From contig CANQAV010000003.1 in assembly GCA_947589425.1 (NCBI GenBank), forward strand, positions 1-38,185: a stretch of 38,185 nucleotides of DNA, written 5' to 3'. Shown in pieces: positions 2,171 through 28,690 of the stretch; the stretch's first letter is position 1, and the number at the start of each line of letters is the position of its first letter. Source of the DNA: Candidatus Gastranaerophilales bacterium. Lineage in GTDB: Bacteria > Cyanobacteriota > Vampirovibrionia > Gastranaerophilales > Gastranaerophilaceae. A model generated the notes under the pieces. The model saw only the letters and a list, made by a program, of their open reading frames with translations, was not told the DNA's origin and did no database searches. Made by a program: the position numbers and the translations under genes.

Positions 2171-3217
2171 ATGAGAATTGGCAAAATAACGACAGCATCA
2201 TACATTTTCAAAGGAAATGAATCGGCAATCAAAACTCCTGCTCCCGCATCAAAGCCGGATGCTTCCGAAAACAAAAAAATAAATATAAATAAATCTGTCA
2301 TTCCGATAGCCGTATCTGTTGCAATAGGCGCTATTGTTATAGGCGGAATTTTAATTAAAAATAAAGCGCCAAAAACAGTTATAACCGAGCCAAAAATAAA
2401 TTTCTCCGAATTATATGAAAGTGCAAAAATTACAAAAAAAGAAGCCGAAGGAGCGCTTGAAAAATCTAAAGGAATTTTCAACACAGCAAAGGAAAAGCTG
2501 TCAGAAATATTTGATTTAATAGAAGAAGGAAGACAAAAAGGCTTTGAAGAAATCACCGCCCAAGGCAGAAAAGTTGAATTTGAAAAAACATCATTGATTG
2601 ATATTGAAGGCAGAAAAACCCCCTCGCTTATAAATGAATTTGATAGCAACGGCGAACTTTTAAGAAAAACCGAATTGCGCAATAGGGGAAAAATTTCCAT
2701 AAAAGAGTTTAATCCCGCCGAAGGAACATACAATCAATATTTATATACTGACAGCTTCCCCGTAAGTTTTGAAAGCGGGGTCAAAATTGGTGAAAATGGT
2801 GCACAATACACAAACGAAAGATTTGATTTTGAATACGGAAAAAATAATTTCCTTGAAGAATATTTCAAAAATTTAACGCTAAGCAAAAATGAAGATAGCG
2901 CCGAAAAATATTTCAAATATTCCAATAATCAAATCACGGAACTGTTTGAAGGATACAAAATTCCGAAAGAAGCAGATTGTGAAATGTATTCCAAAAAAAT
3001 CACATGCAACAACTTATCAAATATAAAAAGTATAGCTCTTGAAGGGGAAAACGACGGTCGGTTTAATTTTGCGCAAGAATTATTTGAATTTGACAGCTAT
3101 GAAAAATTAAAAACCGCCTACACAAATTCCGAATTTGATGATTTAACAAAAAAAAGAACATACGAAGCAAAATATATCCCCGATAAAAACGGAAACTTAA
3201 TATCAGCAGACGAATAA
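2171..3217 (+). CDS. Accessory membrane protein with N-terminal FKG motif
   Basis: I do not recognise a functional domain in this 348-residue protein. It begins MRIGKITTASYIFKGN, and this short leader ending in FKG recurs in the protein at 23737-24465. Next come an Ala/Pro/Lys-rich stretch, one clear transmembrane segment (about residues 43-62, VIPIAVSVAIGAIVIGGILI), a charged helical region (residues 75-125), and an acidic Tyr/Phe/Asn-rich C-terminal half with phrases such as NEFDSNGELLRKTELRNRG and EAKYIPDKNGNLIS. The latter recall short strand repeats of secreted or toxin-associated proteins, but that is only a resemblance. No classical cleavable signal peptide is seen. The ribosome-binding site is weak (AGGTAATATTTT). 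Confidence 0.6.
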   Translation: MRIGKITTASYIFKGNESAIKTPAPASKPDASENKKININKSVIPIAVSVAIGAIVIGGILIKNKAPKTVITEPKINFSELYESAKITKKEAEGALEKSKGIFNTAKEKLSEIFDLIEEGRQKGFEEITAQGRKVEFEKTSLIDIEGRKTPSLINEFDSNGELLRKTELRNRGKISIKEFNPAEGTYNQYLYTDSFPVSFESGVKIGENGAQYTNERFDFEYGKNNFLEEYFKNLTLSKNEDSAEKYFKYSNNQITELFEGYKIPKEADCEMYSKKITCNNLSNIKSIALEGENDGRFNFAQELFEFDSYEKLKTAYTNSEFDDLTKKRTYEAKYIPDKNGNLISADE

Positions 3218-15020: not shown

Positions 15021-15070
15021 TGTAACAATAAGGTTTAAAAACCTAAAGAATAGGCTCATTATGCCGTGTA
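15021..15070 (+). promoter_or_regulatory. Sigma-28-type promoter with TGTAACA element
   Basis: TAAAGA (15044-15049) and GCCGTGTA (15063-15070) match the sigma-28 consensus TAAA-N15-GCCGATAA with exactly 15 bases between TAAA and GCCG. TGTAACA lies at 15021-15027, and a perfect inverted repeat AGGTTTAAAAACCT (15030-15043) lies between it and the -35 box. The gene begins at 15118. Confidence 0.6.
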
Positions 15071-15117: not shown

Positions 15118-15594
15118 ATGAGCTTAGAAATCAATACAGCAATATATAATTCAAAAGGTGTTGATTTAAGCGCTGTATCAAGCGTTGCAAGCCAAATTTT
15201 AAACAACGCAAAAGCTCAGGCACAGCCTCAAGTTCAAGTAATTGATTATTCAAAGTTTAACAGGGCAACTCTTGGAATTGACCTTTATTCTTCAAGAACA
15301 AATGCCGAACTTCAAAAACAAATATCTCTCACTCAAGCAGGTCTTTATACTCAATCGGTTGATGTAGCGAAATTAAACTCTCAGGCAGCCTTAAACCTCT
15401 ACAGTGCCGAAACGGTAGCAAAAAATGTTGCCCTTACTCAATCCGTACAGCAAACGGAGCTTACTCCCGTTAAACAAATTGAAGAGCCGAAAAACATTGT
15501 TGAACTTTTCAATATAACAGATAAAAACTCCAATTCGCATAACGGCTTTAACCCGTTTAATACAGATGAAGAAACAGCAGACAAAAAGCAATAA
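15118..15594 (+). CDS. Small Ala/Gln/Ser-rich protein under a sigma-28-like promoter
   Basis: I do not recognise a family for this 158-residue protein. It has no signal peptide or membrane segment. It begins MSLEINTAIYNSKG, faintly reminiscent of flagellin N-termini, but it lacks the flagellin length and C-terminal domain. The middle (residues 45-110) is amphipathic and semi-repetitive (LGIDLYSSRTNAELQKQISL then AALNLYSAETVAKNVALTQ), suggesting a helical hairpin. The last 40 residues are polar and Asn-rich. The start is supported by GTGGAGG about ten bases upstream. It is a single-gene unit with its own terminator at 15634-15664, and its promoter resembles those of the three EF-hand hydrolase genes. 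Confidence 0.7.
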   Translation: MSLEINTAIYNSKGVDLSAVSSVASQILNNAKAQAQPQVQVIDYSKFNRATLGIDLYSSRTNAELQKQISLTQAGLYTQSVDVAKLNSQAALNLYSAETVAKNVALTQSVQQTELTPVKQIEEPKNIVELFNITDKNSNSHNGFNPFNTDEETADKKQ

Positions 15595-21624: not shown

Positions 21625-23658
21625 TTATACCAACTTGGTATCTTTTGTAATATTCTTGCCTGTCAATTCATTATATATAGACAATACTCCGCCAACCCAG
21701 CCTTTATTCATGCCGTTAGGGTCATTTGCAGCTCCAATGGGACAATATTTATCGCCTATTGTTTGAATTGTTGTTCTGCCTTGTTGAATATAATTTTTTG
21801 ACAGGTTCGAAATAACCGCTTCAATACCGTCTTCAAGCGTTGCAAATTGCTTAATTGTCATATAATTAGTTGCACTGTCCATAAATCCGCCCGGATTGTT
21901 TTTATTTTTTATGGCACTTGAAGTACCCCAGCCTGTTTCCCATGCCATAATTGAAGTTACAAGATAAGGGTCTATATCATATTTTTTTGCCAATTCTTCA
22001 ATTGCTTCCCCTTTATCCGCTAAAACGCCTTTTTGCAAATTTGTATCCTTGAAAATGTCTTGGAAATCAGTTGATATACTGTTTTCTTTAATATTGTTCA
22101 TGGTTTCCAGTTCGGATATTTTGGCTTCAATTTCTCTCAATTCTCCTTGTTTTTCTTCAAGGTTGGTTTGAGCTTGTTGAATTTCGGCTTCTTGATTTTC
22201 TTTTGCGGTTTCAAGATTATTTTCAGCTTCCTGATATTGTTTCAAAAGTTCTTTTGTTTCATCCGAACATGTTTGTTCAATTTCGCTTTCTATTTCATCA
22301 CGTCTTTTTTCAAGCCCTTGTAATTTGCTTTCTTCTTGTTCAAGTGCATCTTCTGTCTCACTTTTTGTATTTTCAAGCTCTTCTTTTTTGCTTTCAGCTT
22401 CGGCTTTTTTAGCTTCTTCTTGGCTTCTCTTTTGTTCAAGAGCTCCCACTTTAGCTTCAATAACAATTCTTTGCGATTCATCACATCCCGATAAGGCGCT
22501 TAGCAATTGTTCAATTGAAGCATCATAAGATTGTATATTTTTATCACATTGGCTTATTGTACTGTCGCAATCTGCAATTTGAGAATCCAGTTCGGTAATT
22601 TTATTTCTGTAATCCTCAATTGTTGATTCGGATGCGCTTATATCATCAAGCACTTGTTTTTGTTCTTGTTTTAATTCTTCCGCTACTTTTTCATCATTTT
22701 CAAGCGCTTCAAGATAGTCTTTTTTTGCGCTCTCTGCATTATCTTGCGCATTTTTAACTTCTTCGCTGTTTTTTGCTTCTTCAACTTCACTTTTTGCATC
22801 ATTTACTTCTGATTCTTTATTTGTTTTTTCCTGCTTTAATTCATCAAGCGACATATTGTCAATATCCTGAGAGATATTTGAGCCGCTATCCGAAACATTG
22901 CTTGAGTTTGTACTGTCATAACTTCCGCCGCCCGTATAATTTCCGCTTGAGCTTGAAACCGGAGAAGCGGGTGCAGCGGATGCGCCCGAGCTTGAAACCG
23001 GAGAAGATGATACCGGAGCAGCTGAAGCGGAAGCATCCTGCTGTGCTGCTTGAGCTTGGCTATCCGCACCTAACGGAGAAGCGGCTTCATTTTCTTCTTC
23101 TTTATTTGATAAATCATCTTTAGATGAAGTTTCATCTTCTTCATCTTCTTCATCAATTTCATCTTCCGAAGAAGATTTTAATTCTTCTTCTATTGAATTT
23201 ACACCCTTTACAAGTTCGTCAAATGTTAAGTGACCGTCTTTATCCGTATCAAATTTTTCCGCTGCCTTAAGAAGTTCATCGGAACTTAAATCATTGCTTT
23301 TATCGGTATCTAAATAGTCCATAACATCCTGTTGAGATATAAATTTATTGATTTCATCAGCCATAAAGTCCGCAAAATCTTCAAGTGCAGTGTCTTCTGC
23401 GCTGTTCGGAATACTTTTTTCGTCACCGTAAACAAGTTTTCCTTCGTCGAAATCAATGTTTGCCACGTTATTAATATCAAAAGAAAATGCATCTACATCA
23501 AAACCTGTTTTATCAAAAATAAAATCTTTAAATTCATCAACTTTTGAAAAAACACTCAAATCGGAATTTTCATTAATCTTTTCGCCTTCTTCTTTATTTT
23601 GATTGTATTGGCTTATAAATTCCGCTTTTAAAAATTGAAAATCAATACGTTCTGACAT
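21625..23658 (-). CDS. EF-hand, coiled-coil protein with glucosaminidase/FlgJ-like hydrolase domain
   Basis: The 677-residue protein has five parts. A shared N-terminal domain (about 1-100, with FLKAEFISQYNQN and EFKDFIFDKTGFDVDAFSFD) is related to the proteins at 24566 and 26767. Two EF-hands follow: loop Asp117-Glu128 (DTDKSNDLSSDE) and Asp137-Glu148 (DTDKDGHLTFDE). Then come an acidic and Ser/Ala/Pro linker, a long coiled coil (about 265-535), and a C-terminal hydrolase domain (about 550-665) with IMAWETGWGTSSAI, probable catalytic Glu574, as in FlgJ-like and GH73-type glucosaminidases. No Sec signal is visible, so export must use another route or the protein acts on lysis. AAGGAG precedes the ATG. 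The promoter is of sigma-28 type. Confidence 0.8.
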   Translation of the reverse strand: MSERIDFQFLKAEFISQYNQNKEEGEKINENSDLSVFSKVDEFKDFIFDKTGFDVDAFSFDINNVANIDFDEGKLVYGDEKSIPNSAEDTALEDFADFMADEINKFISQQDVMDYLDTDKSNDLSSDELLKAAEKFDTDKDGHLTFDELVKGVNSIEEELKSSSEDEIDEEDEEDETSSKDDLSNKEEENEAASPLGADSQAQAAQQDASASAAPVSSSPVSSSGASAAPASPVSSSSGNYTGGGSYDSTNSSNVSDSGSNISQDIDNMSLDELKQEKTNKESEVNDAKSEVEEAKNSEEVKNAQDNAESAKKDYLEALENDEKVAEELKQEQKQVLDDISASESTIEDYRNKITELDSQIADCDSTISQCDKNIQSYDASIEQLLSALSGCDESQRIVIEAKVGALEQKRSQEEAKKAEAESKKEELENTKSETEDALEQEESKLQGLEKRRDEIESEIEQTCSDETKELLKQYQEAENNLETAKENQEAEIQQAQTNLEEKQGELREIEAKISELETMNNIKENSISTDFQDIFKDTNLQKGVLADKGEAIEELAKKYDIDPYLVTSIMAWETGWGTSSAIKNKNNPGGFMDSATNYMTIKQFATLEDGIEAVISNLSKNYIQQGRTTIQTIGDKYCPIGAANDPNGMNKGWVGGVLSIYNELTGKNITKDTKLV

Positions 23659-23696
23659 ACATTTCTCCTTGCCGAATCAGATTACTTTTGTTCATG

Positions 23697-23736
23697 CTAT
23701 CGGCACGAATGTGTGTTAACTTTATTTTTTGTTACA
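23697..23736 (-). promoter_or_regulatory. Sigma-28-type promoter with TGTAACA element
   Basis: On the minus strand TAAAGTTA (23724-23717) and GCCGATAG (23704-23697) are the best match in the window to TAAAGTTT-N11-GCCGATAA, with 16 bases between TAAA and GCCG. TGTAACA lies just upstream (23736-23730). It serves the gene starting at 23658. Confidence 0.65.
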
Positions 23737-24465
23737 TTATTTAATAATTATATTCTCTCCGAAAACTTCTTTTAGTTTTTCTGCGAAATCGCATTTACCG
23801 ACAAGGGGCTTCCCTTCGGGGGAAAGCGGAATATAGTTTGATAAACATACGACCGCTTTTCCGTTTTCAATATATATCGGCGGGTTGTTTTTAGCTTTTT
23901 TCAAAGCCTCTTGAAGCTTATCCGTTCTTATATAAGTTGTACCGTAAGCATCCTCATATTTATATGAAGATGCACGAATTTTTGTATTTTGTATTATTGT
24001 TTCATTTCTGACTAATAAACTGTGTATAATTTTAGGGTCAATTCCCAATATTTCTTCCAGCCGTTCTTGAGCTTTAAAGCTGTCTAAAGGCGGATTTTGT
24101 TCAATACTGTCATCATCTCCCAAAACAATTCTGTGGTTTATATTTCTTGCTATTTGAGCTGCTTTTGGAACATCAATTTTTCCCTTTTTTAGAATTTCTT
24201 TTTCATAAACAAAAGCCAGCCCTTTGCATGATTTTATTTTTTTAGCAAGAACAAATTTTATGCACACTTCATCAGCGCCCGTCTGTTGTGCTGCCTGTTG
24301 AATATTATCATATCTTTTAAGCTGTCTTTTGTAATTTATTGAATAAACGGCTTCTTGTTTTTTGCCTTTAAAACTTGTGTTTAATTCATCATGTTTTGAT
24401 AAATTTTTAATTTTTAAAGGATTAACAGGTTGAAAAACAGGCATAATATTATTTGAAATACGCAT
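23737..24465 (-). CDS. FKG-motif protein with NUMOD1-like DNA-binding segment
   Basis: The 242-residue protein starts with a short leader ending NTSFKGKKQ, like the protein at 2171-3217. Residues about 38-90 (AVYSINYKRQLKRYDNIQQA, AQQTGADEVCIKFVLAKKIK, SCKGLAFVYEKEI) match the layout of NUMOD1 modules, small DNA-binding helices usually attached to homing endonucleases. No GIY-YIG or HNH nuclease motif is present. The remaining C-terminal part (about 120-242) is charged and mostly unrecognised, with RASSYKYEDAYGTTYIRTDK. It may be a stand-alone regulator. A good site (AAAGGAAAATTT) precedes the ATG. It lies between two hydrolase genes, all on the minus strand. Confidence 0.6.
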   Translation of the reverse strand: MRISNNIMPVFQPVNPLKIKNLSKHDELNTSFKGKKQEAVYSINYKRQLKRYDNIQQAAQQTGADEVCIKFVLAKKIKSCKGLAFVYEKEILKKGKIDVPKAAQIARNINHRIVLGDDDSIEQNPPLDSFKAQERLEEILGIDPKIIHSLLVRNETIIQNTKIRASSYKYEDAYGTTYIRTDKLQEALKKAKNNPPIYIENGKAVVCLSNYIPLSPEGKPLVGKCDFAEKLKEVFGENIIIK

Positions 24466-24565
24466 AAATTTTCCTTTTGCTCAGTCATATTGTTAAAAAC
24501 CTCAAAAAGAAAATTTATACAAAATAAGATTATAATTATAATTATTTTATTTACAAAAGTTTATA

Positions 24566-26671
24566 TTAAGCAATCAGAGCCTGAAGCATTACGGCAACGC
24601 CAAGCTGCTGGTCGACATAATTTGCATCATATTTGCCGTCTGCTACATATTTACCGCATTTATAATTGCTTGTGCCTGCCCATACATAAGGAGAAGGAAC
24701 TCCTTTGTTCCTATAGCCCAGACCATTATATCTTTCTGCATAATCATACCAGGTACTAATATCATTTTTATTAACGTTGCTTAAATTACCGCCGTAGTTT
24801 TTAATTGCGTCAATCGCAGCTGTCGTCCAATCGGTAAAATATACTCCTTTTGGTACATGGGTTGTTGTTTTACCGAGCGGGTCGCCGTTGTGAAGATATG
24901 TATTGAAATTACCGCCCGATTCTCTCCAGTGGATTGCAGCGATAAGTTCTGCGGGAAGTCCTGTTTTTGATTCAACTTCTCTGTATTGGCTTTCATGTTC
25001 TGTCCAGGTTTTTTTAAATAATTCAAGTTCATTTTGCTGTCTTGAACTTAAGTTTAGGCTGAAATCAAAATCAAATTGTCCCTTATAAGCGCTGTTTTGA
25101 ATTTGAAATGCATCTCTTGAGGTTATTTCATTGCTAACATCACTCAATTGATTTTGTTTTACTTGTACATTTCTTTGTGCCAATTTCAATTCACGCTGTT
25201 GTACATTTTCAAGGTTTGTTTGTGCGGATTGATAATTTTTTAATGCGTTTTGTACCCCGGGAGAAGCCTGATTGCTTATTTTTGACTGTACACCGGACAA
25301 TTGACTGTTAAAACTGTTTAAGTCGGATTGGGTTTTGCTTATATTAGAATTTAAAGTTGAAATAGAATTATTTAAACTTTTCAATGATTTGGCAGCACTT
25401 TCCAAAGCGCTTGTTTCGTCGCCTATTTTAGCCATAATTTCTGCATATTTTTCAGGATCATCCTTATATTGTTCAAGTAATTTATTATATTCTTCAATTT
25501 TTTTCTGATGATCTTCAATTTCATCCTGCAATTTTTTCTGTTCGGATGCTTTGGAAGTCATTTCGCTGTTATATGCCGCAAGGTCATCTTGCGCATTTTT
25601 TATATCTTTTGCAAGTTTTTCCTGTTCTTCTTTTAATTCTTTCTGTACTTTTTCATCTTTTTCAAGAGCTTTCTGATAAGCGTCTTCCGCTCTGTCTACT
25701 CGGTCTTGAGCTTTTTCAATAGAAGAAGTTAATCCGTTATAAACGTCATTCAATCTGGTATTGGCTTCTTCAAGAGCTTGTTCTCTTTTGTCTTTTGCAG
25801 CCAATAATTCATCATATTCCATATTATCTACGGAATTTTCATCATTGCATTTTGAAAACGTATCTCTGTTTTCTCTTGCGTTCTTTTCTCCGTTTTCTTC
25901 GTCAAGTTCAATTTCTTCTTCAATTTCTTCTCGTCTTTGAGATAAATCCGTATCGTATGAAAATTTTCCGCTTTGGATATCATCCCAAGCACGTTTAATA
26001 TCGGCTTCCGATACTTCATCACCGTCATCGGAATAATCTTTAATATAATCCAAAAACTTTTTCTTTGATTCTTCCGTAACTTGACCGTATTCATCCACAG
26101 TCAAAACATTTTTACCATTTTCAAGTGAGAGTATTTTATCTAAAATATGGTTTTGGTTAATCTCTTCTTTTGTTTTTTCATCCAAATTGCTGTCATCTCC
26201 GTATGAAATAGCTTCATTTGCCAATTCATCGAAATCAAGATTGCCGTCATCATCCGAATCAATACTTTGAACATGGCTTATTGCTTCATCAGTGCTTATT
26301 TTACCGTCATTATTTATATCAAGAACGGAAAGCGAATTTGACTCGGAAAGAATTGAGTTCAATTCATCAAGCATGAAATTTGAAAAATCAGAAGCCAGTT
26401 TTAAATTTTCATCGTTTAAGGACGCTGAAGTTTGATTTGGGTTAACAAATTTGCCGTTCTCAAACTTCATTTTAGAAATTTCATCAATTTCAAATGAAAA
26501 AACGCTTGAATCGCATCCTGTCTCATCCTGAATATATTTTTTAAATTCTTCTTCATGGGAAAAAATGATTGAATTATCACTATCATTTGTTTCACTGCTT
26601 TTTTCAGCGTTGTTGTTGTATTTACTGATAAATTCGCTTTTTAAAAAATTAAAATTAACATTTTCCGACAT
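24566..26671 (-). CDS. EF-hand, coiled-coil protein with lysozyme-family domain (paralogue 2)
   Basis: This 701-residue protein shares the N-terminal domain (FLKSEFISKYNNNAE, EFKKYIQDETGCDSSVFSFE) with its two neighbours. EF-hand loops DINNDGKISTDE and DSDDDGNLDFDE are canonical. A third, looser acidic loop (DYSDDGDEVSEAD) lies further on. A coiled coil covers about 300-535. The C-terminal 150 residues have LIAAIHWRESGGNFNTYLHN, GDPLGKTTTHVPKG, YNGLGYRNKGVPSPYVWAGT and VDQQLGVAVMLQALIA, the pattern of a phage-type lysozyme family (COG5526-like, from memory). Glu584 is the likely catalytic acid. The frame is open to 26740, but AAGGAAAG before the ATG at 26671 and the paralogue starts favour MSENVNF. 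No signal peptide. Confidence 0.82.
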   Translation of the reverse strand: MSENVNFNFLKSEFISKYNNNAEKSSETNDSDNSIIFSHEEEFKKYIQDETGCDSSVFSFEIDEISKMKFENGKFVNPNQTSASLNDENLKLASDFSNFMLDELNSILSESNSLSVLDINNDGKISTDEAISHVQSIDSDDDGNLDFDELANEAISYGDDSNLDEKTKEEINQNHILDKILSLENGKNVLTVDEYGQVTEESKKKFLDYIKDYSDDGDEVSEADIKRAWDDIQSGKFSYDTDLSQRREEIEEEIELDEENGEKNARENRDTFSKCNDENSVDNMEYDELLAAKDKREQALEEANTRLNDVYNGLTSSIEKAQDRVDRAEDAYQKALEKDEKVQKELKEEQEKLAKDIKNAQDDLAAYNSEMTSKASEQKKLQDEIEDHQKKIEEYNKLLEQYKDDPEKYAEIMAKIGDETSALESAAKSLKSLNNSISTLNSNISKTQSDLNSFNSQLSGVQSKISNQASPGVQNALKNYQSAQTNLENVQQRELKLAQRNVQVKQNQLSDVSNEITSRDAFQIQNSAYKGQFDFDFSLNLSSRQQNELELFKKTWTEHESQYREVESKTGLPAELIAAIHWRESGGNFNTYLHNGDPLGKTTTHVPKGVYFTDWTTAAIDAIKNYGGNLSNVNKNDISTWYDYAERYNGLGYRNKGVPSPYVWAGTSNYKCGKYVADGKYDANYVDQQLGVAVMLQALIA

Positions 26672-26699
26672 AATAGCTTTCCTTGTTTTCCTAAAATGT

Positions 26700-26749
26700 T
26701 TTACGGCACAAATACCTAAACACTTTAATATTTGTAACAATTTGTTACA
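26700..26749 (-). promoter_or_regulatory. Sigma-28-type promoter with perfect TGTAACA inverted repeat
   Basis: On the minus strand TGTAACAAATTGTTACA (26749-26733) is a 17-base inverted repeat. Five bases later comes TAAAGTGT (26727-26720), then GCCGTAAA (26707-26700), with 16 bases between TAAA and GCCG. It serves the gene at 24566-26671. Confidence 0.65.
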
Positions 26750-26766
26750 TGGAAAACAAAGGTATA

Positions 26767-28611
26767 CTATGCAATCAAAGTTTTTAGCATAACGGCAACG
26801 CCCAATTGTTTATCAACCATATTGGCATCATATTTACCGTCAGTTTTAAATTTCCCGCATTCATACTTGTTTGTGCCCGCCCAAACATAAGGAGATTTTA
26901 TGGGATGTTTCAATTTCTGATATCCAAAGCCGTTATAAGATTCGGCAAAATCATACCATGTTTGAATATCATCTTTTTTTATTGATTTAGGGCTGTTGCT
27001 ATAGTCACCCGATAAAGCATCAATTGCCGCTTCGGTCCAATCTTCATAGTAAATGCCTTTGGGTACAAGGGTAGTTGTCTTACCCAAACGTTGACCGTTG
27101 TGAAGGTATGTACCAAAGTCACCGGCTGATTCTCTCCAGTGGATTGCAGCGATAAGTTCTGCGGGTACTCCCGTTGCCTGTTCAACTTTACGGTATTTAT
27201 CTTCATTCTTGTTCCAGGTTTTTTTGAATAATTCAAGGTCTGATGCTTGACCCGAACTTAAATTTACCTTGAAATCAAAGTCGAAATCATAATCATCCGA
27301 GGAATAATTTTGTGCAATTTTTTCTGCTTGTCTTGTTGATAATTCTTGATTTATTTTGTCTAATTCATCTTTATTTTCTTGTAATTTATCATTAGCTGCT
27401 TTAAATTCCTCAGATTTTACGGTTTGTAAATCTTTTTTAGCATTTTGATATTCGTTATATGCTTTTTGCAGTTTTGGTGATTTTTTTGCTTTAGAGCTTA
27501 TTTTTTCATCAACAGCATTTGTCGTTTCTTCATACGAATTAAGATTTTTCCCTATAATTTCAATTTTTAAAGAAATATCACTGATTTCGGCATTCAAGCC
27601 GTTATATTCTTTAGAAACGGTATTCAAATTATTTATTTGCTCATTTATTTTAGCTTGAACATCACTGATATTTTCTTTGATTTTATTTTGTTTTTTGGCA
27701 TCCTTACCGCATTTTTCAAGTTCTGCACTCAAATTGCTCAATACTTGGTTATACCCGTCAATTGCAGTTGTAATATCTTGAATTTTGACTTCCAATTGTT
27801 TTGCTTGCGACAATTTTTCAAGCTTTTGCAAATTATATTGCTTCATATCATCGCCGGAAATCTCTGTTTGAAGGGTATAAGTCGTCTGAGAATTTTTTAG
27901 ATTATCGTTAATCTTTTCGTTTGTTTCAATCGCTTTTTGATATTTTTTCTGAGCGTCATCAAACCTTGCCTGTGCTTCTTGAATTTTCGGATTTTCGCCG
28001 TTATAAAGACTTGTTAATTCTTCCTGCGCTTCATCATAACCCGCTTGAAGCTCTTCTTTTTTATCGGATAATTCACTGTCGGAAAAATCAATAAACTCAG
28101 AAGGCTTTTGCGCCGAATTATAAGAATTATCCGCAAGGGATTGAATACCCTTAGAAAGTTCATCAAAGGTTAATTTCTTATCATCATTATTTATTTTATC
28201 TACAAACGCTTCAATTTCATCTTGGTTTAAATATCCGCTATTGTCGCTATCCAGCAAGCGAATTGTATTTTCCTGAGCTAAAACTTCATTTAATTCTTCA
28301 ACCGTAAAATTATAAAAAGCATTGCTCATTTTTTGATTTTTTGTAATATTATCAAAAAGCCCGGCTTTTTCGGATTTTGGTACTACAAATTGACCATCCT
28401 CAACATCTAATTTTTTTAGTTTTTTAACATCAAAAGAAATACTGCTTTCTTTTACACCCGTTTCTTCTTTGACAAAATCTTTAAATTCTTCATTCTGAAA
28501 ATAAATGCTTAAAGAATCATCTTCCGCATTATTTTTTTTATCCTTGGAAGAGCCGTTATTTTCTTGTATAAACTGTTTTTTTAAAGAATTTAAATCAATG
28601 TCTTTTGCCAT
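26767..28611 (-). CDS. EF-hand, coiled-coil protein with lysozyme-family domain (paralogue 3)
   Basis: The 614-residue protein has the family N-terminus (SLKKQFIQENNGSS, EFKDFVKEETGVKESSISFD). One canonical EF-hand (DSDNSGYLNQDE) is followed by a degenerate partner (NNDDKKLTFDE). A long coiled coil spans about residues 180-430. The lysozyme-family domain is close to that of the neighbouring paralogue: LIAAIHWRESAGDFGTYLHN, GKTTTLVPKG, ESYNGFGYQKLKH, SPYVWAGTNKYECGKF and VDKQLGVAVMLKTLIA, with probable catalytic Glu494. GAGGAATAGTGT precedes the ATG. There is no signal peptide. It appears to be the result of tandem duplication with the gene at 24566-26671, including the promoter. Confidence 0.82.
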   Translation of the reverse strand: MAKDIDLNSLKKQFIQENNGSSKDKKNNAEDDSLSIYFQNEEFKDFVKEETGVKESSISFDVKKLKKLDVEDGQFVVPKSEKAGLFDNITKNQKMSNAFYNFTVEELNEVLAQENTIRLLDSDNSGYLNQDEIEAFVDKINNDDKKLTFDELSKGIQSLADNSYNSAQKPSEFIDFSDSELSDKKEELQAGYDEAQEELTSLYNGENPKIQEAQARFDDAQKKYQKAIETNEKINDNLKNSQTTYTLQTEISGDDMKQYNLQKLEKLSQAKQLEVKIQDITTAIDGYNQVLSNLSAELEKCGKDAKKQNKIKENISDVQAKINEQINNLNTVSKEYNGLNAEISDISLKIEIIGKNLNSYEETTNAVDEKISSKAKKSPKLQKAYNEYQNAKKDLQTVKSEEFKAANDKLQENKDELDKINQELSTRQAEKIAQNYSSDDYDFDFDFKVNLSSGQASDLELFKKTWNKNEDKYRKVEQATGVPAELIAAIHWRESAGDFGTYLHNGQRLGKTTTLVPKGIYYEDWTEAAIDALSGDYSNSPKSIKKDDIQTWYDFAESYNGFGYQKLKHPIKSPYVWAGTNKYECGKFKTDGKYDANMVDKQLGVAVMLKTLIA

Positions 28612-28639: not shown

Positions 28640-28690
28640 TTAACGGCACTTTATTTTTTTGCTTTAATTTTTTTAACAATTTTTTACATT
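28640..28690 (-). promoter_or_regulatory. Sigma-28-type promoter with degenerate inverted repeat
   Basis: On the minus strand TAAAGC (28666-28661) and GCCGTTAA (28647-28640) have 15 bases between TAAA and GCCG. Upstream, TGTAAAAAATTGTTAAA (within 28690-28671) aligns with the perfect inverted repeat before the paralogue at 24566-26671. It serves the gene starting at 28611. Confidence 0.6.

What the first reader, a model, noticed from the sequence alone, without database searches (positions are those of the whole stretch)
21625..28611. Family of three EF-hand, coiled-coil peptidoglycan hydrolases without signal peptides
Genes at 21625-23658, 24566-26671 and 26767-28611 share an N-terminal domain, paired EF-hands, a coiled-coil stalk and a C-terminal muramidase-like domain. 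I know of no described system with this architecture: calcium-binding loops plus a long stalk plus wall hydrolase, yet no Sec signal. The conserved N-terminal ~90 residues may be a targeting signal for a flagellar-type or other secretion machine. Visible: domains and paralogy. Inference: export and calcium control.
Basis: partly seen in the sequence, partly recalled or inferred. Interest (0 to 1): 0.8.

Follow-up and report, generated by a model that had tools for sequence, protein, structure and literature searches.

The report
Swappable wall enzymes under flagellar control
Three neighbouring genes of a gut bacterium belong to a newly recognised family of signal-less cell-wall-cutting proteins with interchangeable enzyme ends; their promoters look flagellar and the genome keeps a flagellum-type export machine even where filaments are lost, so this machine probably secretes them.

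Summary
Genes at 21625-23658 (A), 24566-26671 (B) and 26767-28611 (C) share an ~80-residue N-terminal domain, EF-hand loops, a coiled coil and a wall-hydrolase end, without a Sec signal. Correction: A ends in a GH73 glucosaminidase; B and C end in an unrelated lysozyme-fold domain. The N-domain is a real family, confined to one Gastranaerophilales family: 26 of 28 species of the window's genus, up to 12 copies per genome, 4 in this one. Its C-termini are modular: lysozyme-like, GH73, SLT, CHAP, C39-like, L,D-transpeptidase, esterase or none, and tandem copies can share the N-domain yet differ in enzyme.

New evidence points to export. The genes carry sigma-28 (FliA) promoters (28 of 68 members versus 12 of 966 other genes; all 4 in this genome), and the genome encodes a FliA-family sigma factor. 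Nearly every family genome (382/383) carries FlhA. A second, very conserved flagellum-type export apparatus persists where flagellins are gone, and its operon encodes another signal-less wall hydrolase. Most likely these are sigma-28-controlled type III substrates. Secretion, calcium control and target are not shown. Precedents: Campylobacter Fed/Cia proteins, FlgJ.

The parts
21625..23658 (-). Gene A, 677 aa: N-domain, two EF-hands, Ser/Gly/Ala linker, coiled coil, GH73 glucosaminidase
23395..23646 (-). Conserved N-domain of A
   Evidence: profile A3 match, E 2.4e-20
23275..23310 (-). EF-hand loop 1 of A, DTDKSNDLSSDE
23215..23250 (-). EF-hand loop 2 of A, DTDKDGHLTFDE
21784..22008 (-). GH73 glucosaminidase domain of A (residues 551-625)
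   Evidence: PF01832 E 8.8e-10; PDB 8yxk phage cell wall hydrolase E 2.5e-17
23697..23724 (-). Sigma-28-like promoter of A, TAAAGTTAACACACATTCGTGCCGATAG (14 of 14 consensus positions)
24566..26671 (-). Gene B, 701 aa: N-domain, two EF-hands, coiled coil, lysozyme-fold domain
26405..26659 (-). Conserved N-domain of B
   Evidence: profile A3 match, E 8.8e-25
26225..26320 (-). EF-hand loops of B (DINNDGKISTDE, DSDDDGNLDFDE)
24569..25063 (-). Lysozyme-fold (muramidase-like) domain of B, HWRES motif
   Evidence: AlphaFold2 pLDDT 96.5, VIA Z 8.7 to MltF
26704..26727 (-). Sigma-28-like promoter of B, TAAAGTGTTTAGGTATTTGTGCCG
26767..28611 (-). Gene C, 614 aa: N-domain, one intact EF-hand, coiled coil, lysozyme-fold domain
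28351..28599 (-). Conserved N-domain of C
   Evidence: profile A3 match, E 4.6e-19
28216..28251 (-). EF-hand loop of C, DSDNSGYLNQDE (second loop at 28159-28191 degenerate)
26770..27264 (-). Lysozyme-fold (muramidase-like) domain of C
   Evidence: 67% identical to that of B
28644..28666 (-). Sigma-28-like promoter of C, TAAAGCAAAAAAATAAAGTGCCG
15118..15594 (+). 158-aa protein of unknown function with the same promoter type at 15044-15066: candidate co-regulated substrate

Best explanation
A, B and C are local paralogues of a Gastranaerophilaceae-specific family of cell-wall-active enzymes made under the flagellar sigma factor FliA (sigma-28) and exported, without a Sec signal, through a flagellum-type type III apparatus that this lineage keeps even where filaments are lost. 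The N-domain acts as, or contains, the export or targeting module; the EF-hand and coiled-coil region is kept flexible in the calcium-poor cytosol, is threaded through the gate, and stiffens outside on binding calcium into a stalk that presents the enzyme; the interchangeable C-terminal domain cuts or modifies peptidoglycan. Shown here: family, modularity, enzyme folds, lack of signal, promoter enrichment, FliA-family sigma factor, conserved export apparatus. Inferred: export by that apparatus, calcium folding, and the target wall (own or neighbours').
For: N-domain family confined to one bacterial family. No Sec-like N-terminus in 68 members. Sigma-28-type promoter: de novo top 6-mers upstream include TGCCGA, GCCGAT and TAAAGT; score >=11/14 in 28/68 members versus 12/966 other genes, shuffled mean 0.6; in the 54% of the own genome that was read, 4/4 family genes versus 8/931 others. 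FliA/WhiG sigma factor over its cut-off. FlhA in 382/383 family genomes; two full-length FlhA and two FliP in the three flagellated genomes checked, one of each in six genomes without the flagellar FlhA. Second FlhA 75-94% identical over nine genomes, 38% to the flagellar one: purifying selection, not decay. Its loci hold rod proteins, FliE, FliF, FliH, FliI, FliO-FliP-FliQ-FliR and an SLT transglycosylase without a hydrophobic signal. Wall-active modules swap on one N-domain.
Against: No secretion experiment exists. The family genes are not linked to the export genes in other genomes. The apparatus is nearly universal in the family, the N-domain is not, so co-occurrence alone says little. Forty of 68 members lack a strong promoter match; a second motif (AGTCAAT, CTTTATAT) is enriched as well. 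Type III signals are not recognisable by sequence, so the N-domain's role is a guess. The model of the N-domain was poor.
Confidence: 0.58

Rival explanations
1. Own-wall helpers: the enzymes are exported by the same apparatus but only open or remodel the cell's own peptidoglycan so that the basal body can pass, as FlgJ or SltF do.
For: FlgJ carries a GH73 domain and belongs to the flagellar rod; A carries GH73 too. An L,D-transpeptidase member suits self-remodelling. No immunity genes lie nearby, as expected if the own wall is the substrate.
Against: The second apparatus already has a dedicated SLT in its operon. Most genomes with the apparatus have no family member (87 of 383 have one), so it is not needed for assembly; up to 12 copies and swapped enzymes exceed what assembly needs.
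Confidence: 0.2
2. Lysis enzymes: the proteins stay in the cytoplasm and act only when cells lyse, like phage endolysins without a signal.
For: The catalytic domains are close to phage endolysins and tail lysozymes.
Against: Genes sit singly among housekeeping genes, not in prophages; the N-domain is absent from the viral contigs with the muramidase domain; sigma-28 control, EF-hands and long stalks are not endolysin features.
Confidence: 0.12
3. Export by another machine: type I (calcium-folding, RTX-like), type IV or a contractile injection system.
For: Calcium-binding acidic proteins without a Sec signal recall type I substrates.
Against: No sheath gene in the own genome, in the 11-copy genome G039, or in 27 of 28 genomes of the genus. 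Gut Melainabacteria were reported to lack a type I system (PMC3787301). Type I signals are C-terminal, whereas here the N-terminus is conserved and the C-terminus is swapped.
Confidence: 0.07
4. Coincidental fusions of unrelated modules, with no common function.
For: Linkers and coiled coils are compositionally biased.
Against: The N-domain keeps a pattern of conserved positions over 32 diverse members, the order N-domain/EF/coil/enzyme recurs, and nearly all modules act on walls.
Confidence: 0.03

Closest known systems
Campylobacter jejuni Fed and Cia proteins (non-flagellar proteins exported by the flagellar type III system)
   Same: Non-flagellar proteins; sigma-28 promoters and not needed for motility (Feds); N-terminal export sequence (PMC9856085, PMC2764114)
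   Different: No sequence relation was looked for; those are not modular wall enzymes. Export of the present family is inferred only.
FlgJ (rod-cap protein with GH73 domain) and SltF
   Same: GH73 end in A; wall enzyme tied to a flagellar-type apparatus (PMC7277832)
   Different: No FlgJ rod-binding domain; EF-hands, long coiled coil, several paralogues and many other enzyme ends. SltF uses Sec.
Partial flagellar gene sets of gut Melainabacteria (MEL.A1, Gastranaerophilus)
   Same: Same lineage; genes retained without a filament were already noticed (PMC3787301, PMC4040986)
   Different: There read as genome reduction or as a set that would not encode a flagellum. Here the retained set is a second, distinct, highly conserved apparatus.
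Polymorphic toxins and effectors with a constant N-terminus and exchangeable C-terminal toxin
   Same: Constant N-domain, swapped enzymatic C-terminus
   Different: No adjacent immunity gene found; enzymes could serve the own wall.
Phage endolysins and tail lysozymes; Myxococcota lysozyme-fold proteins
   Same: Homologous catalytic domain, mostly 37-53% identity to that of B
   Different: Other N-termini; no N-domain in those examined.

Membership tests
GH73 glucosaminidases (gene A) | Profile match over the curated cut-off | tested here: met
   PF01832 39.8 bits, cut-off 30.2
GH73 glucosaminidases (gene A) | Catalytic Glu in the E-[ST]-G-x-G-x-S motif | tested here: met
   WETGWGTSS aligned with HETGNGSSS of 8yxk
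GH73 glucosaminidases (gene A) | Enzymatic activity | not testable with these tools
   needs a zymogram
Lysozyme superfamily (genes B, C) | Fold | tested here: met
   model pLDDT 96.5; the Foldseek and VIA rows shown are essentially all lysozyme-superfamily enzymes, best Z 8.7 to MltF, 7.8 to goose lysozyme, 6.3 to FlgJ. Z is modest; no Foldseek E below 0.001
Lysozyme superfamily (genes B, C) | Catalytic Glu at the end of the second helix | tested here: met
   Glu48 of HWRES invariant in 37 sequences, at the end of helix 38-49; residue-level superposition not seen
Lysozyme superfamily (genes B, C) | Match to a curated Pfam transglycosylase family | tested here: inconclusive
   SLT_2 E 0.002 in C, under its cut-off; none in B
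EF-hand proteins | Canonical 12-residue calcium loop | tested here: met
   two in A, two in B, one in C; 61 of 68 members have at least one
EF-hand proteins | Calcium binding | not testable with these tools
   needs titration
Flagellar type III substrates (sigma-28 class) | No Sec signal | tested here: met
Flagellar type III substrates (sigma-28 class) | Sigma-28 promoter and sigma factor | tested here: met
   4/4 genes in the own genome, 28/68 over the family; FliA/WhiG factor; promoter use itself untested
Flagellar type III substrates (sigma-28 class) | Export apparatus in the same genome | tested here: met
   FlhA, FlhB, FliP, FliQ, FliR, FliO, FliE, FliF, FliH
Flagellar type III substrates (sigma-28 class) | Secretion that depends on the apparatus | not testable with these tools
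   needs experiment
FlgJ | N-terminal rod-binding domain | tested here: not met
   no such Pfam match in A, B or C
Polymorphic toxin systems | Exchange of C-terminal modules on one N-domain | tested here: met
   tandem pair in G303: 70% identity over the first 50 aa, about 10% near the ends, SLT versus another enzyme; 17 changes of end type on the N-domain tree, many forks unresolved
Polymorphic toxin systems | Adjacent immunity gene | tested here: not met
   no conserved neighbour around the family genes in 41 loci

The most novel reading that the evidence does not exclude
Gut Melainabacteria have turned a filament-free flagellar basal body into a dedicated secretion machine that, under the flagellar sigma factor, delivers a polymorphic set of calcium-folding wall enzymes against neighbouring bacteria.
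Probability: 0.2. Interest if true: 0.92.

Novelty: new variant of a known kind. Interest (0 to 1): 0.74.

Why it matters
It gives a testable job to the flagellar genes that non-motile gut Melainabacteria keep and that were read as decay. If true, a near-universal second type III apparatus in a common but hardly cultured gut lineage serves secretion, with sigma-28-controlled, exchangeable wall enzymes among its cargo. It would add a non-photosynthetic cyanobacterial lineage to those with type III secretion beyond motility and offer a route to these organisms' interactions with other gut bacteria.

Tried and rejected
Contractile injection systems as exporter: sheath absent from the own genome and nearly all relatives of the genus. 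Conserved gene neighbours or immunity genes: none. Linkage to export genes: only in this genome (about 11 kb apart), not elsewhere, so not used as evidence. Structure of the N-domain from three window sequences: pLDDT 47, useless. First genome-contig scan with the full protein C: nothing, near relatives withheld. A search for family-like domains at low threshold among other proteins found none. PHROGs gave no name for the muramidase domain.
Full report
What is there. The three ORFs are on the minus strand at the coordinates given. A (677 aa), B (701 aa from the ATG at 26671, preceded by an AAGGAA-type ribosome site) and C (614 aa) share an N-terminal ~80 residues with the pattern LK..F..YL - SIF....EFK.FL - DGKLV. 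EF loops follow: two canonical in A and in B, one in C with a degenerate second. Then comes a coiled coil that HMMs liken to SMC proteins, then an enzyme. B and C end in a different domain, 67% identical between them.

The B/C domain. It is below Pfam cut-offs, but a model from 37 homologues has pLDDT 96.5. The Foldseek and VIA rows shown are essentially all lysozyme-superfamily enzymes, best Z 8.7 to MltF. A His-Trp-Arg-Glu-Ser motif with invariant His, Arg and Glu lies at the end of the second helix. Relatives occur behind several other signal-less N-termini in Gastranaerophilales, in Myxococcota, and in viral contigs, both as lysin-sized proteins and inside long proteins that look like tail hub proteins.

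The family. The N-domain profile finds 87 of 383 genomes of the bacterial family, 26 of 28 species of the window's genus, 1-12 copies each, and nothing outside that family among 386 genomes of the phylum. Contig names place the relatives in Candidatus Gastranaerophilales, mostly from animal guts. The own genome has a fourth member, L112:7634-9070, with a CHAP/NlpC-like end. Among 69 members with a complete end there are at least eight kinds of C-terminus: CHAP or related cysteine domains, lysozyme-fold, esterase-like alpha/beta hydrolase, C39-like, SLT, L,D-transpeptidase, GH73, and coiled coil only. Ends change at least 17 times on the N-domain tree, which has many unresolved forks. Neighbouring copies in one genome (G303) are 70% identical over the first 50 residues and about 10% near the ends, one an SLT and the other a cysteine-type domain. 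In the window, the N-domains of A, B and C form one supported group although A has another enzyme.

How might they leave the cell? None of 68 members has a Sec-like N-terminus. The upstream regions were compared with those of 966 other genes of the same lineage without assuming a motif: the top 6-mers included TGCCGA, GCCGAT and TAAAGT, the two halves of the sigma-28 promoter (E. coli FliA consensus TAAAGTTT-N11-GCCGATAA, from general knowledge). A has all 14 scored positions. With spacers of 11-13, 28 of 68 members and 12 of 966 other genes score at least 11 of 14 (p about 6e-27; shuffled upstreams give 0.6 on average; intergenic-like AT-rich controls 10 of 709). The genes are related, so the p-values overstate independence. 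In the 1.01 Mb of the own genome that could be read, 12 of 935 genes have TAAA-N13-15-TGCCG close before the start, and all four family genes are among them. Others include the 158-aa protein at 15118-15594 in the window and a 487-aa protein beside the export operon (L109:9815-11278). A FliA/WhiG-family sigma factor is encoded (L265:16476-17300, over its cut-off).

The machine. FlhA-type gate proteins occur in 382 of 383 genomes of the family. They fall in two classes, 38% identical: class 1, over the NCBIfam flagellar cut-off, in genomes rich in flagellins; class 2, below both the flagellar and the injectisome cut-offs, 75-94% identical over nine genomes. The three flagellated genomes checked have both classes and two FliP; the six others, including the window's, have class 2 and one FliP. 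Of those six, G010, G028, G033 and G039 have no flagellin found; G114 was not in that search and is inferred from its class; the window's genome keeps one flagellin gene of 308 aa, so it is not strictly flagellin-free. Class-2 loci hold rod proteins, an SLT enzyme without a hydrophobic signal, FliE, FliF, a FliG-like protein not confirmed by profiles, FliH, FlhA and FliI in one stretch, and FliM/N-like, FliO, FliP, FliQ, FliR in another. FlhB is separate in the own genome. Earlier papers saw partial flagellar sets in gut Melainabacteria and read them as reduction (PMC3787301) or non-functional for motility (PMC4040986); the strong conservation of class 2 argues instead for a kept function.

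Mechanism and limits. Putting these together, I think A-C are sigma-28-controlled cargo of the class-2 apparatus. Precedents: Campylobacter exports sigma-28-dependent non-flagellar proteins by its flagellar system (PMC9856085, PMC2764114), and FlgJ is a glucosaminidase of the flagellar rod (PMC7277832). A low-calcium unfolded state in the cytosol with folding outside is an attractive reason for the EF-hands, by analogy with RTX proteins, but is only inference. Whether the enzymes act on the own wall, on neighbours or as released enzymes is open. Swapping and copy number suggest varying targets; the lack of immunity genes and the L,D-transpeptidase member suggest own-wall work.

Against: no experiment; the apparatus is near-universal while the family is not; 40 of 68 members lack a strong promoter match; no linkage in other genomes; about half of the own genome was not read.

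Noticed in passing
L109:1402-7994 (G000:C3, 1.2-8 kb beyond the window's end); L225:15962-19621; L130:10544-11734: A second, highly conserved flagellum-type export apparatus (FlhA class 2 and partners) present in nearly all genomes of the family, also without flagellin; its FlhA scores below both flagellar and injectisome cut-offs.
   Followed up: partly
L111:10082-11530 and L191-L198: A stand-alone protein made only of the cytoplasmic half of FlhA, in all nine genomes checked: possibly an extra docking platform for export chaperones.
   Followed up: no
window 15118-15594; L228:8604-9155: Small proteins of unknown function sharing a 'SKFNR' stretch, each with a sigma-28-like promoter: candidate export substrates.
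   Followed up: partly
window 2171-3217, 23737-24465; L151, L161, L172: Several signal-less proteins of this lineage carry an N-terminal F-x-G type motif (NTSFKGK, YIFKGN, VRFYGN, KISFGNN), some fused to the muramidase domain: perhaps another targeting tag.
   Followed up: no
L140, L141, L143, L144, L146, L149: A second compact architecture in relatives: 'MSENYKIGNYEI'-like N-terminus, one EF-hand, short coiled coil and the same muramidase domain, again without a signal.
   Followed up: no
upstream of part of the 68 family genes: A second enriched upstream motif (AGTCAAT, CTTTATAT), possibly another promoter type.
   Followed up: no
L248, L249 (viral contigs): The muramidase domain sits inside long phage proteins that look like baseplate hub proteins.
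   Followed up: no
L264:1256-2182: The window's genome keeps one intact flagellin gene (308 aa) though it has only the class-2 FlhA.
   Followed up: partly
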